NCBI GenBank assembly: GCA_902536695.1
Contig: CACAYQ010000007.1
Location: forward strand, 1 to 41,781
Direction of reading: 5' to 3'
DNA length: 41,781 bases
From: an uncultured Bacteroidota bacterium
GTDB taxonomy: Bacteria > Bacteroidota > Bacteroidia > Flavobacteriales_D > Parvicellaceae
In this document: positions 32,367-38,581 of the stretch, piece by piece
Layout: each line of letters opens with the position of its first letter
How positions within the stretch are numbered: the first letter of the stretch is position 1
Position numbers and translations under genes: made by a program
The notes under the pieces: model-generated
The model's input: the letters and a program-made list of their open reading frames with translations, nothing else
The model's database searches: none
What the model was told of the DNA's origin: nothing

Positions 32367-33248
32367 TCATAATTCTTTTTGTAAAAATAAATTATAAATT
32401 ATTCCATCAGACAAGCCTACTTTAGGAACAATTATTTGGTTTGCCCCGGTAGAACTCATCACCATTTTATAGATTTCACCTGATGGAACAATTACATCTG
32501 CTCTATCCGGTTTAAGCTTCAAGACACGAATTCTATCTTCATAGCTAAATGATGATATATATTTTATTATTTCATTTAAGCTTTTGTAGGTCATAGGTTG
32601 GTCAAAGTTATGTTTACTTAAGTTGTAAAGTTTATTTATGCTTCCCCCTGTACCTATGGCTGAGATCTCTTCATTTTTTGAATAGTTGTCATTCAGCCAA
32701 GATTTCATTTGAATTTTTACTTTTTCAGCTTCATTCCCACTTAAATACCTCACAGATCCGATATTAAAAGATTTTGATGAAGTCTTCACATTGTTTTGAA
32801 TTAGTGATAGTTCAGTACTACCACCACCTACGTCAATGAATATATAATTCTTTTCTAGGTCAATAGATGACAAATGAAAGTTGGAAAATATCATTTTTGC
32901 CTCTTCTTTTCCAGAAATTACTTCTAAATCTATTCCGGTGTTATGAAGTATACTTTCACAAATATCATGTCGGTTTTCAGCTTCTCTCATTGCACTAGTC
33001 GCACATGCTCTGTAAAAATCAACTTCATTAATCTTCATAAGAAGTTTAAAAGCTTTAAAAGCATCAATAAGTTTACTTTTTGTTTTTTCTGTGACATAAC
33101 CTTTAGAGAACACATCTTTACCTAACCGTAAAGGAATTCTCGTTAAAGAAATTTTCTTAAAATAAAAGTCATTTTTACTGACAACTTTAGATTCTTCAAT
33201 AAGTAATCTTATAGCGTTTGAGCCAATATCTATCGCTGCAAATATCAT
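32367..33248 (-). CDS. Ppx/GppA family phosphatase (short form)
   Basis: This 293-residue member of the ASKHA fold family begins FAAIDIGSNAIRLLIEE, the first phosphate-binding loop. The second is FIDVGGGSTELSLIQ, with EAKMIFSNFHL and SAIGTGGSINKLYNL later. Only the two-lobed phosphatase core is present, without the C-terminal HD-like region of E. coli Ppx. The family cleaves polyphosphate or converts pppGpp to ppGpp; the sequence does not decide which. It is transcribed alone, divergent from mutA and convergent with miaA. ATG 33248 fits the first strand. Confidence 0.9.
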   Translation of the reverse strand: MIFAAIDIGSNAIRLLIEESKVVSKNDFYFKKISLTRIPLRLGKDVFSKGYVTEKTKSKLIDAFKAFKLLMKINEVDFYRACATSAMREAENRHDICESILHNTGIDLEVISGKEEAKMIFSNFHLSSIDLEKNYIFIDVGGGSTELSLIQNNVKTSSKSFNIGSVRYLSGNEAEKVKIQMKSWLNDNYSKNEEISAIGTGGSINKLYNLSKHNFDQPMTYKSLNEIIKYISSFSYEDRIRVLKLKPDRADVIVPSGEIYKMVMSSTGANQIIVPKVGLSDGIIYNLFLQKEL

Positions 33249-33325
33249 CTTATTCTAAATATATAATTTTTAATGTGGATTATCAATTATAGTTCGCTAT
33301 GTGTATATTTACTTTTTATTTCTTT

Positions 33326-34591
33326 ATGGAAAAAGCACATCCATGGTCATCTTTTAAATCTTCAAGTCCATCTGAATGGAGAGATAAAATTCTTAATGAC
33401 TTAAAAGGCAAACCAATTGACAGTTTAACATGGAATACAACTTATGGTAGAATTGATCCAACTGAAATTTCTGATCATTTCAACGAAATTTCATTCAAAT
33501 CTACTGAAGAAATATCCTGGGAATTTAATGCTGATTTAGCATTGAATACTAACATTCTTGAGGTGCTTAATAATGGTGCAAATTCCATTTATTTGAACAA
33601 CATCCCTTATAAAGAAAATATTTTCTCAAGTGTGATGAACGATATTATACACACACATGTAAATATCAATGAGCTTAGCGCTGAAGATCAATATTCATGG
33701 ATTAATTGGGCTCAAGCAAATGACTTCTCTGGATCTATTAGAAATACTATTCATCCATCTCATCTACTTCAAAATGATTTTGTACAAAACTCTGAAAATT
33801 TTAAGAAGTTAAATGGGAAATTGGAAGACCATGTAATGAACTGTTTATTTATTGATGGTGATTATTTTTCAAATCGAATTTTTGAGATAGACTATGAACT
33901 TGCTTGGTTATGTTCTTATTTAAATGAGCTGATTGAATATTATCTCATTAATAAAATAGTTATTCCAAAGAAAATAATTATTTCTACTTCTTTAGGAACT
34001 ACCTTATTTGAAAATATAGCTAAAATAAAATCTCTCATTGTACTAGCAAATACCATAATAAAGGTTCATAATTTAGATTGTGCTATTGAAATAGAAACCT
34101 CTTTCAATCAAGTAGACATTAGCCCAATTGAAAAAGAGCATCATATTCTAAGGTTAACTGTAGCTTGTATGTCCAGTACCCTTTCAGGTTCGAAAAGATT
34201 TAAATTAGGTTCAAAAGATGCCATTTTTGATGGTGATTATTGGAACAAAATTGCATGTAACATTCCTATCATTTTAAAAGAAGAATCTTATTTGTTTAGG
34301 AATATAGACGCAACCAAAGGTTGTTATATTATAAATCAATTAGAAAAAAAGTTAGCTGATTCTTCATGGAGTAAATTCAAAATGATTGAATCAAATGGAG
34401 GTTTCAGATCAACAAATAATAAAAAGCAATTTAATGAGGTTGTTGAAGAAAATAGCAAGAAAAGACTGCATGCTTTAAAGGAGAATAAAAAAATGATAAT
34501 CGGTTTTAATGCTTTTTCAACTGCTGAAGATCAAATTCAATTTAATAATGAAATGAAAACCCCCTTATATCTTCAAGATTTAATTTCATGA
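33326..34591 (+). CDS. mutA: Methylmalonyl-CoA mutase small subunit
   Basis: This 421-residue non-catalytic subunit pairs with MutB. It begins [32 protein letters not shown], a typical MutA N-terminus. It retains a degenerate TIM-barrel and lacks the C-terminal B12-binding domain found in the longest MutA proteins. I chose ATG 33326; an upstream in-frame ATG at 33299 adds nine hydrophobic residues that do not look family-like. Its TGA overlaps the mutB ATG (ATGA), so the two are coupled. It takes part in interconversion of succinyl-CoA and (R)-methylmalonyl-CoA. Confidence 0.9.
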
Positions 34592-36645
34592 GAAAATCCT
34601 TTGAACATATACATTTAGATTTCCAATCAAAAAAAAGTCAAAAATTATCTCATCAAGAATATCATTCTGGGATCCCTCCCTTCTTAAGAGGACCATATTC
34701 TACCATGTATCTTAGCCGACCCTGGACTATTAGACAATATGCTGGTTTTAGTACCGCAAAAGCTTCTAATGAATTCTACAGAAAAAACCTAGCTGCAGGA
34801 CAAAAAGGACTTTCAGTTGCATTTGATTTGCCTACTCATAGAGGATATGATTCAGATCATAAAAGAGTTACAGGCGATGTGGGAAAAGCTGGTGTAGCAA
34901 TTGATACCGTGGAAGATATGAAGGTATTATTTGATCAGATCCCTCTAGATAAGATGTCAGTCTCCATGACTATGAATGGGGCTGTTATACCTGTTATGGC
35001 ATTTTACATTGTTGCAGCTATGGAACAAGGTGTGGACTTAAAAAGTTTATCAGGAACAATACAGAACGATATACTTAAAGAGTTCATGGTAAGAAATACC
35101 TACATATATCCACCATCACACAGCATGAGGTTAATTGGTGATATTTTTCAATACACTTCTAAGAATATGCCAAAATTCAATTCCATCAGCATATCTGGTT
35201 ATCATATGCATGAGGCAGGTGCTAGCGCTGAAATAGAACTAGCCTATACTTTAGCTGACGGTCTAGAATATATACGAACAGGAATTAATGCTGGTCTGGC
35301 TATTGATGATTTTGCTCCTAGATTGTCTTTTTTTTGGGGGATTGGGATGAATCACTTTAGAGAAGTTGCAAAAATGAGAGCTGCTCGATTGTTATGGGCT
35401 AAAATTATAAAAGATTTCAATCCTAAAAACCCAAAGTCAATGGCGCTGAGGACTCATTCACAAACATCAGGATGGAGTCTGACGGAGCAAGATCCATACA
35501 ACAATGTTACAAGAACATGTGTTGAGGCCATTTCTGCAGTTTTGGGGGGAACACAATCATTGCATACCAATTCACTTGATGAAGCTATTGCCTTACCAAG
35601 TGAATATGCTGCTAAAATTGCTAGAAACACGCAATTATTTATTCAAAACGAAACTGATATTACTAAGATGATAGATCCTTGGGGTGGTTCTGAATACGTT
35701 GAAAAACTTACGGAGGAAATAGCGCTTAATGCCTGGGAGTTGATAAAAGAAGTAGAAGACTTAGGTGGGATGACAAAAGCAATTGAGTCAGGACTACCAA
35801 AAATGAGAATTGAGGAATCTGCTGCCATCAGACAAGCAAGAATTGACAGTAACAAAGAACTCATTATTGGTGTAAATTCATACCAATCCAAGACTGAACC
35901 TGATATTGAAACTCTTGAAGTAGATAATAAAAAGGTGATAGAGAGCCAAGTTGAAAGATTAAAAACAATCAAGAATAACAGGGACCACATTAAAGTTCAA
36001 AAGGCACTAGATGCTATAACTAAATGTGCTAATGAACAAAATGGTAATTTATTAGAGCTTGCAGTTAACGCAGCCAAAGAAAGAGCCACACTGGGGGAAA
36101 TATCTAATGCAATGGAACAGGTATTTGGTAGATATCAAGCTACTGTAAAAACAATTTCAGGTGTATATTCAAATGAACTTATGAACGATGAAAATTATAT
36201 TAAAGCTCTAGACTTAGCAAAGCAATTTGAAACTAAATCAGGAAGAAGACCTAGAATTATGATAGCGAAGATGGGGCAAGATGGACACGATAGAGGAGCT
36301 AAAATAGTTGCAACTTCATTCGCTGATATTGGATTTGATGTGGATGTGGGTCCATTATTTCAGACCCCATTTGAAGCAGCAAAACAAGCCATTGAAAATG
36401 ATGTTCATATTATTGGTATTTCGTCTCTTGCTGCAGGGCATAAAACATTAGTTCCTGAGGTAATTAAGGAATTAAAAAATCAAAAAAGAGAAGATATCAT
36501 GGTCATAGTTGGTGGTGTTATTCCTAAAAAAGATTATGATTATTTATTTGATGAGGGAGTAGCAGCTGTTTTTGGACCAGGGACTAATATTCCTAAAGCC
36601 GCTCAAGAAATTATAACCATTATGCTAAATGGCATTAACTCTTAG
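34588..36645 (+). CDS. mutB: Methylmalonyl-CoA mutase large (catalytic) subunit
   Basis: This 685-residue adenosylcobalamin-dependent mutase isomerises succinyl-CoA and methylmalonyl-CoA in propionate metabolism. The N-terminal substrate barrel includes [26 protein letters not shown] (CoA channel), [28 protein letters not shown] and [12 protein letters not shown]. The C-terminal cobalamin domain has D565-x-H567-x-x-G570 in [10 protein letters not shown], where H567 is the lower cobalt ligand, followed by [14 protein letters not shown] overlaps the mutA stop. Its stop is 2 nt before a small repeat-protein gene. No epimerase or MeaB chaperone gene is in the window. Confidence 0.98.
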
Positions 36646-36647
36646 AA

Positions 36648-37073
36648 ATGAAGCCAATTAAAATCAGAAGTTTGAATTACCCTGCTAAAATTCTTTTAGC
36701 ATGGAAAGAAGCCATTGGGGGAAATAAAGAAATTAGATCATTCCTACTTAAAAGTAAGTACAAGGAACTGGGAGTTTTTTGTTTTGCACTGATGAACGAT
36801 AAATCATCAAGAGAGTGGCTATTAAAAAATAATTATGCTCATTTACTAGCATTGATACATGGAGTTGAAGGAAAGACAGATGCTTGGTATTGGCTTAAGA
36901 AAAATGAATTTACCACGTTATTTCATATGGCAAGAGGAGGTGACTCGTGGAAAGAATCATTAGATTGGTTAAAAGAAAGAGATAAGATTTTATATGGAAT
37001 AACTCTGCAAATGGAAAAAATAAAAGATGAGATTGATGAGAAAAACAATGATCCTCACAAAATCAATCCCTAA
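36648..37073 (+). CDS. Small protein with 25-residue helical repeats, coupled to mutAB
   Basis: I do not recognise this 141-residue protein. It shows an internal repeat of exactly 25 residues with aromatic anchors F32, W57, W82 and W107: SFLLKSKYKEL, EWLLKNNYAHL, YWLKKNEFTTL, DWLKERDKILY. The repeats look like paired short helices, so a helical solenoid is likely. There is no signal peptide or membrane span; the tail is charged (about 121-141). It starts 2 nt after mutB, strongly suggesting co-transcription. Its stop abuts the stop of the next, convergent gene (TAATTA). A role with the mutase is inferred only from position. Confidence 0.75.
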   Translation: MKPIKIRSLNYPAKILLAWKEAIGGNKEIRSFLLKSKYKELGVFCFALMNDKSSREWLLKNNYAHLLALIHGVEGKTDAWYWLKKNEFTTLFHMARGGDSWKESLDWLKERDKILYGITLQMEKIKDEIDEKNNDPHKINP

Positions 37074-37634
37074 TTATTTTATTATCTCAAGAACTTCAGC
37101 CGCTTCTATTATCTCATTAAGCGTACTATCATTTTCTACTTGTTCATCAGAACTTGAATCTGATGCTTGATCTGTTATTTGAGGTTCATCAGCCTCTATG
37201 TCATGATGTGATTCATCCGATGAATGCTTGGCATGAACATCATCTACTTCTATATGTTCTTCATGGCTACTATCTCCCGTAAACATGATAAAACCAAAAT
37301 ATCCACCTACAGCAAGTAGTAATACAATAAGTGATATTAAAATGAGTTTCTTCTTAGTTTTAGGTGGATTTGAAACTTCAATATTTTCGGAAGATTCTGA
37401 AGCAACATCGTCATTATCTATAGCAGAAGGGCGTACAGGTTTACTAGTTTCAATAGATTTATTGATTTCCTTGTAAACAAGCTTAGATGGTCCACCCTTT
37501 TGATATATTTCTTCTAACCTTTTAAAAACTGCGTCTTCATCCTGTCTAAAGTTTCTTGCTATTTGTTTAGCTAAGTAAAGTCGATCGGGGTCATTTTTTT
37601 TAAAAAAATCTTTTAATCTTTTTTGATAGGACAT
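37074..37634 (-). CDS. Single-span membrane protein with His/acid-rich tail
   Basis: This 186-residue protein of unknown function has three parts: a basic N-terminal helical region (about 1-60, RLKDFFKKNDPDRLYLAKQI and DAVFKRLEEIYQKGG), one membrane span (about 96-118) after a KTKKK stop-transfer block, and a tail rich in Asp, Glu, Ser and His. Six His (124, 127, 134, 137, 143, 144) lie within 21 residues, which could bind metal. The basic N-terminus is likely cytoplasmic and the tail periplasmic. It is convergent with the mutAB operon and divergent from the patatin gene. There is no signal peptide. Confidence 0.7.
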   Translation of the reverse strand: MSYQKRLKDFFKKNDPDRLYLAKQIARNFRQDEDAVFKRLEEIYQKGGPSKLVYKEINKSIETSKPVRPSAIDNDDVASESSENIEVSNPPKTKKKLILISLIVLLLAVGGYFGFIMFTGDSSHEEHIEVDDVHAKHSSDESHHDIEADEPQITDQASDSSSDEQVENDSTLNEIIEAAEVLEIIK

Positions 37635-37711
37635 GATGTAATTTTTTGTTCAGTTAAATATATAAATTTAGATGACTTAACTTTATCTAATATTCTAAAA
37701 CTTTCAGGATA

Positions 37712-38581
37712 ATGAGAAAAATCGCTCTAGTTATACAGGGAGGTACACTCAGAACTATTTTTACTGCTGGTGTGTTGGATGGATTTATGAGTTTACGTTT
37801 CTTCCCTTTCCAATATATGGTTGGAGTTTCAGGTGGAGCGATGTGTTTGGCCTATTATGTAAGTCGACAACGTAAATGTGCGTATGATATCTTTAAACAT
37901 ATTTTTGATGATGAAAAATTCATCAATTGGAAAAATATGTTCTCTGAACAAGGAATGATAAATTTAGAATACTTAGTTCAATACGCTAAAAGCAGACATC
38001 ATATTAACATGAGAAAGTTTAGACGATTTTCAACAAACAGATTAGTTGAAATTGTAACCACATCATACTATACAGGTAAACCCATTTACATTGTTCCAAA
38101 TACAACTAATTTATTTGATGTAATAAAAGCAAGTGCAACCCTACCATTTTTAACTAAAGGTGTACAAGTGGTTGATGACCGCATAAAGTTATTGGATGGA
38201 GGATGGAGTGACCCAATACCTGTAAAAAGAGCCATTAAATTGGGATATAAGGAGATTGTAGTTATTAGAACCTATCCTAAAGAACATAGAGAAAATTGGA
38301 CCTACATGAACAAATTTGGAAGTTATTGGCATAAAAACAATCCTGAGTTAAGTAAAACATTTGACTCTGACCATATTAAATATAATGAAATTGCTAACTT
38401 TTTGGAAACAGACCTATATCCAATAAAAATTCATCAGATCATACCCGAAAATTATCTTGAAACTACAAGTTACTCTACAAGTCAAAAAAAACTTCAAATT
38501 GATTATAGACATGGCTTTGAATTGGGTGTTGAAATGGCCTTAAAATTGAAAAGAAATATATTTAGAAAGAAAATTGAATGA
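37712..38581 (+). CDS. Patatin-like phospholipase, YjjU group, with altered oxyanion loop
   Basis: This 289-residue protein matches E. coli YjjU along its length: IFTAGVLDGFM, GVSGGAM with nucleophile S40, KASATLPFL and LDGGWSDPIPVK with D162 of the Ser-Asp dyad. The oxyanion loop that reads GGGQRG in YjjU reads QGGTLRT here (about 9-15), replacing Gly by Thr and removing the Gly after Arg. It has no signal peptide, so it is probably cytoplasmic. Substrate is unknown; patatins hydrolyse acyl esters. Its 3' end overlaps the convergent DUF2797 gene by 20 bases. Confidence 0.86.
   Translation: MRKIALVIQGGTLRTIFTAGVLDGFMSLRFFPFQYMVGVSGGAMCLAYYVSRQRKCAYDIFKHIFDDEKFINWKNMFSEQGMINLEYLVQYAKSRHHINMRKFRRFSTNRLVEIVTTSYYTGKPIYIVPNTTNLFDVIKASATLPFLTKGVQVVDDRIKLLDGGWSDPIPVKRAIKLGYKEIVVIRTYPKEHRENWTYMNKFGSYWHKNNPELSKTFDSDHIKYNEIANFLETDLYPIKIHQIIPENYLETTSYSTSQKKLQIDYRHGFELGVEMALKLKRNIFRKKIE

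What the first reader, a model, noticed from the sequence alone, without database searches (positions are those of the whole stretch)
36648..37073. Exact 25-residue tryptophan-anchored repeat protein coupled to methylmalonyl-CoA mutase
F32, W57, W82 and W107 recur at exactly 25-residue spacing in a repeated (aromatic)-L-(L/K)-K motif, giving a compact helical repeat of a type I do not recognise (the spacing is unlike TPR at 34 or HEAT at about 40). It begins 2 nt after mutB. It could be a mutase-associated scaffold or chaperone, or a family of its own.
Basis: partly seen in the sequence, partly recalled or inferred. Interest (0 to 1): 0.5.

Follow-up and report, generated by a model that had tools for sequence, protein, structure and literature searches.

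The report
Uncatalogued 25-residue helical repeat protein family
A small bacterial protein built from regularly spaced 25-residue helical repeats belongs to a widespread family that the databases searched here do not describe, and its position beside a vitamin B12 enzyme gene is mostly a habit of one bacterial family, not a sign that the two work together.

Summary
The 141-residue ORF at 36648-37073 has F32, W57, W82 and W107 at exact 25-residue spacing. Lag 25 is the best self-similarity (0 of 10,000 shuffles reach it), and in a 45-sequence family profile only lags 25 and 50 are positive. AlphaFold models of this protein and a distant homologue show about two short helices per 25 residues, at low confidence (pLDDT 61.8 and 65.8).

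The family is real, and no library searched gives it a convincing match (Pfam, NCBIfam, PHROGs, PADLOC, PDB sequences). It is found in 135 of 150 genomes of the order (113 of 119 near-complete ones); diverged relatives occur elsewhere in the class (95 of 295 genomes).

The mutase link does not hold for the family. The gene is near mutB in 23 of 29 positive genomes of the window's own family but in 2 of 106 others. Seven f3 genomes have the gene but no close MutB. Elsewhere it follows unrelated genes.

Best reading: a lineage-specific core gene for a small soluble alpha-solenoid, probably a protein-binding adaptor. The repeat is shown; the fold is supported weakly; the function is inferred. The repeat unit does not resemble the ankyrin, HEAT and TPR proteins tested.

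The parts
36648..37073 (+). Repeat-protein gene (141 aa, ATG to TAA)
   Evidence: homologues in 135 of 150 genomes of the order
36684..36728 (+). N-terminal half repeat, residues 13-27 (AKILLAWKEAIGGNK), second helix only; conserved Y11 stands just before it, and K14, W19 and G25 lie in it
   Evidence: register with residues 38-52; conservation Y11 100%, W19 99%, G25 99% of 152
36729..36803 (+). Repeat 1, residues 28-52, anchor F32
36804..36878 (+). Repeat 2, residues 53-77, anchor W57 (100% W in 152)
36879..36953 (+). Repeat 3, residues 78-102, anchor W82
36954..37028 (+). Repeat 4, residues 103-127, anchor W107; its second helix runs on into the C-terminal cap
37029..37070 (+). Conserved C-terminal tail, residues 128-141 (EIDEKNNDPHKINP); I129 93%, D135 94%, H137 91% of 152
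34588..36645 (+). mutB, methylmalonyl-CoA mutase large subunit: neighbour in the same probable transcription unit, judged not part of the system
   Evidence: PF01642 and B12-binding, PRK09426 1249.8 bits
33299..34591 (+). mutA-like small subunit (430 aa), overlaps mutB by 4 nt: neighbour, judged not part of the system

Best explanation
The gene encodes a small soluble alpha-solenoid: one half repeat and four repeats of 25 residues, each a helix of about 9 residues, a short N-G-(aromatic)-P/E turn and a helix of about 10 residues. The aromatic-Leu pair and small residues (mostly Ala) form the core; a conserved cap follows (K126, I129, D135, H137). It belongs to an uncatalogued family of nearly fixed size, inherited largely with its host lineages within part of the class Bacteroidia and nearly universal in the window's order. 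It most likely works as a protein-protein adaptor. Its adjacency to mutAB in the window's family is co-transcription, not a functional requirement: other lineages place the gene behind other unrelated genes. Shown: the repeat, the family, its distribution, the shifting neighbourhood. Supported at low confidence: the two-helix fold. Inferred: the adaptor role, co-transcription, and membrane proximity in some lineages from an aromatic and basic N-terminal extension.
For: 25-residue periodicity. Both AF2 models are all-helical, with helices alternating at the repeat spacing. 135 of 150 genomes of the order, 55 of 56 genera; 66 of 198 and 95 of 295 class genomes with profiles; the fetched relatives keep about 4.5 repeats. 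The tree of 152 sequences mostly groups by host family. No convincing library match. mutB linkage 25 of 135. 7 f3 genomes have the protein without close MutB. Recurrent other neighbours among 78 loci: a membrane-protein gene of one cluster upstream in 11 loci, an M16-like peptidase gene facing it in 9, an RluD-like gene upstream in 7 (names given by eye, not scanned). No long hydrophobic stretch in the core (maximum 19-residue mean 1.69) and median core pI 5.9. N-terminal aromatic/basic extension by a set rule in 26 of 152.
Against: No partner, phenotype or structure is known, so the adaptor role is inferred only from the type of fold. The models rest on 3-row alignments (pLDDT 61.8 and 65.8), and no PDB match is significant (best Foldseek E 1.5 and 3.6; VIA Z at most 4.2), so an alpha-solenoid is likely but unproven. 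The conserved D-x-H tail could be a binding or catalytic site, although H137 is Y in 7%. The clustered mutB link in one family could reflect a lineage-specific partnership. The 26-of-152 N-terminal rule includes at least one probable out-of-frame extension (L171). Nominal Pfam hits exist, best E 3.4e-4 in one of 45 members, and LNS2_PITM1-3 in 10 of 45 (best 0.0018) and Ish1 in 9 of 45 (best 0.0051).
Confidence: 0.55

Rival explanations
1. A mutase-associated scaffold or chaperone: it binds MutA/MutB and helps assembly or B12 handling.
For: 2-nt gap and same strand in the window; near mutB in 23 of 29 positive genomes of the same family (22 within 63 nt, one at 567 nt) and in 2 genomes of two other families. 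The link is clustered on the tree: 5 changes against a shuffled mean of 22.7. In some unlinked genomes only 1.0-2 kb upstream was held (10 of 104 outside the family, all 6 unlinked ones inside it).
Against: Not near mutB in 104 of 106 positive genomes outside the family; 93 of these 104 had at least 2.9 kb upstream. Present in 7 f3 genomes with no close MutB (G038, G049, G056, G454, G459, G467, G471), three of them at least 99% complete.
Confidence: 0.08
2. A diverged member of a known helical repeat class (ankyrin without its hairpin, HEAT, TPR or DUF4116).
For: Similar overall idea (short helical hairpins). Weak Ank_4 hits in 4 of 45 members, best E 0.032, and in L042, E 0.099. Real ankyrin and HEAT proteins score about 0.8 bit above their shuffles with the unit profile, less than one shuffle SD. 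PF13475 (DUF4116) has 49 positions, about twice 25, and a published contact-based model of it is an alpha-solenoid (PMC8078820, passages).
Against: The unit profile gives ankyrin, HEAT and TPR proteins of the same order best means of -2.57, -3.07 and -3.83 bits against -3.39, -3.90 and -3.77 for shuffles, while 26 distant family members average 17.5 bits. hhalign probability is at most 4.4% for these, against 99.8% for distant family members. DUF4116 was not among the Pfam families shown but was not compared profile to profile.
Confidence: 0.15
3. A relative of the helical domain of ECF sigma factors or another transcription protein.
For: tblastn hits to ECF-sigma-like ORFs (L033, L034) at E 8.2e-5 and 1.8e-4; weak NCBIfam sigma hits; sigma-containing PDB rows among the insignificant Foldseek matches; the A1 profile scores L033 at E 5.5e-6 and L034 at 1.1e-4 in a 22-protein set.
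Against: Searched as a whole genome with the profile, the genome of L033 (G061) has no match at E 0.001. hhalign against 10 ECF-type sequences gives 2.9-5.1% probability. Sigma factors lack a 25-residue repeat (recalled).
Confidence: 0.05
4. A nucleic-acid-binding solenoid, as in PPR or TALE proteins.
For: A solenoid of short helical hairpins is compatible with it in principle.
Against: Core net charge averages -3.2 (range -13 to +6) and median pI is 5.9 in 152 members; fixed repeat number; no hypervariable specificity position was looked for.
Confidence: 0.06

Closest known systems
alpha-solenoid repeats as a class (TPR, HEAT, ankyrin, Arm, alphaRep)
   Same: Tandem two-helix units with a conserved hydrophobic signature; many rows of the fold searches are such repeats, none significant.
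   Different: The unit is 25 residues (these are about 31-42, recalled), the signature is (A)-x-x-W-L-x-x-N-G-(Y/F)-x-E-L, and there is no convincing profile or unit-level similarity to ankyrin, HEAT or TPR.
DUF4116 (PF13475)
   Same: Pfam model of 49 positions, recalled as two units of about 25; modelled as an alpha-solenoid (PMC8078820, passages read).
   Different: Not among the Pfam families listed for 45 and 9 family members; it rang neither in 14 control genomes nor in the window's genome, so that search is uninformative; no direct profile comparison was possible.
MutA/MutB methylmalonyl-CoA mutase
   Same: Genomic neighbour in the window's family.
   Different: Not linked or required in most other genomes of the order.

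Membership tests
Methylmalonyl-CoA mutase accessory protein | Gene linked to mutAB across lineages | tested here: not met
   25 of 135 positive genomes, 23 of them in one family
Methylmalonyl-CoA mutase accessory protein | Occurs only where the mutase occurs | tested here: not met
   7 f3 genomes have the protein but only a weak (E 4e-54 to 1e-57) or no MutB match
Methylmalonyl-CoA mutase accessory protein | Physical binding to MutA/MutB | not testable with these tools
   no complex prediction offered
TPR | 34-residue TPR signature | tested here: not met
   period 25; no TPR family among the Pfam families shown; unit profile no better than shuffles on 12 TPR proteins
HEAT | Match to a HEAT profile | tested here: not met
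   no HEAT family among the Pfam families shown; unit test and hhalign negative
Ankyrin | 33-residue unit with beta-hairpin and TPLH signature (recalled) | tested here: not met
   period 25; only sub-threshold Ank_4 hits; unit profile within one SD of shuffles on 12 Ank proteins
DUF4116 | Match to the PF13475 profile | tested here: inconclusive
   not among the families shown (25 of 50 families shown); no profile-profile comparison
alpha-solenoid (fold) | Stacked two-helix repeats in a solved or confident model | tested here: inconclusive
   two low-confidence AF2 models show paired helices at repeat spacing; VIA-align Z at most 4.2

The most novel reading that the evidence does not exclude
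The family is a new alpha-solenoid class with a very short two-helix unit (25 residues) and a fixed size of four and a half units. It would be a core protein of part of the Bacteroidia whose conserved caps and D-x-H tail dock an important partner, in some lineages at the membrane through an aromatic and basic N-terminal extension.
Probability: 0.4. Interest if true: 0.55.

Novelty: new variant of a known kind. Interest (0 to 1): 0.42.

Why it matters
It adds a distinct repeat family, without a convincing match in the curated libraries searched, that is close to universal in one order of Bacteroidia and persists in diverged form in other families of the class. A near-universal gene with no annotation is a good candidate for a missing lineage-specific cell function, and a very regular 25-residue unit would interest those who design repeat proteins. 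It also corrects a tempting guilt-by-association call to methylmalonyl-CoA mutase.

Tried and rejected
Rejected: chance or spurious ORF. Mutase coupling as a family trait. Fusion proteins: open frames of 306-530 aa in f74 were looked at; the family homology begins at a conserved internal Met and the upstream part looks like read-through of an open frame (by eye). Phylum-wide hits outside the order with the single sequence (L033-L035): two are sigma-like ORFs, recognised by eye, and one has stops inside; treated as false. Ankyrin, HEAT, TPR and sigma relationship. The mobile-element idea: no match in 72,556 plasmid records; the viral contig scan could not be run. A conserved neighbour: among 78 loci only lineage-specific ones. 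No Rfam match in the window, and no promoter or terminator excess at 33000-37900.

Absences in the fold lists (no ankyrin chain among the VIA rows, for instance) are not evidence, since only Foldseek's own 118 and 104 candidates were aligned.

Literature: searches for '25-residue repeat'/'helical repeat'/'Bacteroidetes', 'DUF4116', 'alpha-solenoid' with '25-residue', 'methylmalonyl-CoA mutase' with 'helical repeat protein' and a four-term solenoid query listed nothing that appears to describe this family, judged from titles and abstract starts. The library holds only open-licence PMC papers. Read: passages of PMC8078820, PMC3236050 and PMC3570807 found by term; of other papers only search listings.

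Full report
WHAT IS THERE. The ORF at 36648-37073 is exactly as described: ATG start, 141 aa, beginning 2 nt after the mutB stop codon. mutA and mutB themselves overlap by 4 nt, and the downstream gene at 37074-37634 is convergent, so the repeat gene is the last gene of a probable mutAB unit. The four aromatic anchors are at 32, 57, 82 and 107.

THE REPEAT IS REAL. Over residues 11-116 the best self-similarity lag is 25, the next 50; none of 10,000 shuffles reach the observed maximum. In the 45-row alignment A1 the profile similarity is 0.868 bits per column at lag 25 and 0.626 at lag 50, and negative at every other lag from 8 to 60. The unit consensus, from 388 units of 97 non-redundant homologues, is roughly x-A-R-x-W-L-x-K-N-G-(Y/F)-(P/E)-(E/H)-L-x-A-x-(A/I)-x-A-(A/L)-(E/D)-(G/N)-(K/D)-(D/E) (that script failed later, after its consensus table was printed). 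A half repeat at residues 14-27 precedes the first full unit. In 152 distinct homologues Y11, W57 and A79 are at 100%; W19, G25, E40, L58 and A68 at 99%; K126 97%, D135 94% and H137 91% mark the C-terminal cap. Those 152 come from loci in which the family profile scores at least 120 bits, and some of them helped to build that profile.

STRUCTURE. AlphaFold2 on the window protein (3-row alignment) gives pLDDT 61.8, with helices at 13-23, 27-34, 39-49, 52-60, 64-73, 77-85, 89-96, 101-111 and 113-132, that is, two per 25 residues. The homologue L042 (23-29% identical depending on the alignment) gives pLDDT 65.8 and nearly the same layout. Both are low-confidence models, and their PDB searches return nothing significant (best E 1.5 and 3.6; VIA Z at most 4.2 and 4.0). 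Many of the rows that do appear are other helical repeats (alphaRep, TPR, designed repeats), beside aminopeptidases and pheromone receptors, which fits a solenoid but does not prove it.

FAMILY AND DISTRIBUTION. No convincing match in Pfam, NCBIfam, PHROGs, PADLOC or PDB sequences. Nominal hits exist: among 45 members scanned in Pfam the best E is 3.4e-4 (Spectrin_SYNE1, one member), and the most frequent are LNS2_PITM1-3 (10 members, best 0.0018) and Ish1 (9 members, best 0.0051). They are weak, differ between members, and I take them for chance similarity of helical sequences. The single sequence finds the family in 51 of 60 relatives and in 135 of 150 genomes of the order, 113 of 119 near-complete ones and 55 of 56 genera. 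One of these, G508, is Fluviicola taffensis RW262T, judging by the exact contig length of 4,633,577 bp (PMC3236050, passages). In samples of the whole phylum only the window's order was hit with confidence: 3 of 395 and 3 of 296 genomes including the window's own; the first sample also listed L033-L035, which I treat as false. Samples drawn evenly from the class reach further: 66 of 198 genomes with the order's profile and 95 of 295 with a broader one, in 30 of 156 genera. Diverged relatives mostly keep the full length and the N-terminal Tyr, and two or three copies occur in some genomes. The tree of 152 sequences mostly groups by host family, as vertical inheritance would give, though with only 148 columns many deep forks are unresolved and rows of f4, f11 and f70 mix with f1.

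THE MUTASE LINK. Loci were examined for all 135 positive genomes of the order. mutB (over 50% identical) lies upstream on the same strand in 25: 23 of 29 in the window's family (22 within 63 nt, one at 567 nt), one in f11 (91 nt) and one in f10 (1.95 kb). It is absent from the flank held in the other 104 of 106 outside the family; of these 104, 93 had at least 2.9 kb upstream, 10 less than 2 kb, none less than 1 kb. The 6 unlinked genomes of the window's family were seen with only about 1.3-1.5 kb upstream, so a mutB one or two genes away would be missed there. None of 25 positive genomes outside the order with a readable single-sequence match showed the link. On the tree the link needs 5 changes against 22.7 for shuffled labels, so it clusters by descent. 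Seven f3 genomes carry the repeat protein yet show only a weak MutB match (E 4e-54 to 1e-57, the level at which about 36%-identical mutases score in the listed rows) or none. Elsewhere the gene follows other genes: a membrane-protein gene in f8 (11 loci), an RluD-like gene in f7, f69 and f106 (7 loci), or faces an M16-like peptidase gene in f9 (9 loci) (78 loci examined; these names are my reading of the sequences). The position next to mutB is therefore a lineage habit.

WHAT IT IS NOT. A profile of the 25-residue unit scores 12 natural ankyrin, 12 HEAT and 12 TPR proteins from the same order at best means of -2.57, -3.07 and -3.83 bits, against -3.39, -3.90 and -3.77 for their shuffles (ankyrin and HEAT about 0.8 bit above, less than one SD), while 26 distant family members average 17.5 bits and 2.5 units each. 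hhalign gives 99.8% between the order's family and the distant members, but at most 4.4% against ankyrin, HEAT and TPR alignments and 2.9-5.1% against ECF-type sigma factors. The alignments of heterogeneous repeat proteins used there are crude, so the unit-level test carries more weight. Results pointing the other way: the single sequence hits two sigma-like ORFs at about 1e-4, the profile gives one of them E 5.5e-6 in a set of 22 proteins, and Ank_4 appears below threshold in 4 of 45 members.

HOW IT MOST LIKELY WORKS. A short, mostly acidic, soluble solenoid of nearly fixed length, with conserved ends, is most simply a binding module. In 26 of 152 members (23 of them in f8) an aromatic and basic N-terminal extension of the type M-x-W-F-K-R precedes the core; by resemblance (recalled) to short membrane-targeting peptides, those versions may sit at the membrane. 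The window protein lacks it. The C-terminal tail is N-N-D-x-H or similar in the order, and often (F/Y)-x-G-P-(F/Y/I) in distant relatives, which may mean that partners differ between subfamilies. Partner and process remain unknown; the adaptor role is inference.

VERDICT. The repeat and the 'family of its own' stand; the mutase coupling does not. A new variant of a known kind (alpha-helical repeat proteins), moderately interesting because it is nearly universal in an order and unannotated in the libraries searched. Checking changed several counts but none in a way that called for other odds.

Noticed in passing
L043-L082, L140-L206 (order members): 26 of 152 family members, 23 of them in f8, carry an N-terminal extension rich in F/W and K/R (for example MNWFKRIFGKE..., MFSFFKK...), resembling short membrane-targeting peptides; the rule also caught a probable out-of-frame case (L171).
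   Followed up: partly
L118:6108-6935, L113-L117, L139: Some class genomes (f98, f105) hold two or three diverged paralogues, in G636 and G734 side by side; several distant members end in a short (F/Y)xGP(F/Y/I) tail instead of NNDxH.
   Followed up: partly
window:33299-34591: The mutA-like subunit is short (430 aa) and scores only 75 bits against the small-subunit model (cut-off 617); it is 46% identical to its counterpart in L041 while MutB is 84%, so it diverges much faster.
   Followed up: no
window:37074-37634 (-): Convergent 186-aa protein with one apparent transmembrane segment (by eye) and an acidic, His/Ser-rich C-terminal half; 49% identical in the nearest relative, and without a convincing family match.
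   Followed up: no
L033, L034: Sigma-factor-like ORFs align with the repeat protein over about 85 residues at E about 1e-4; profile-profile comparison does not support homology, but the similarity recurs in several libraries.
   Followed up: partly
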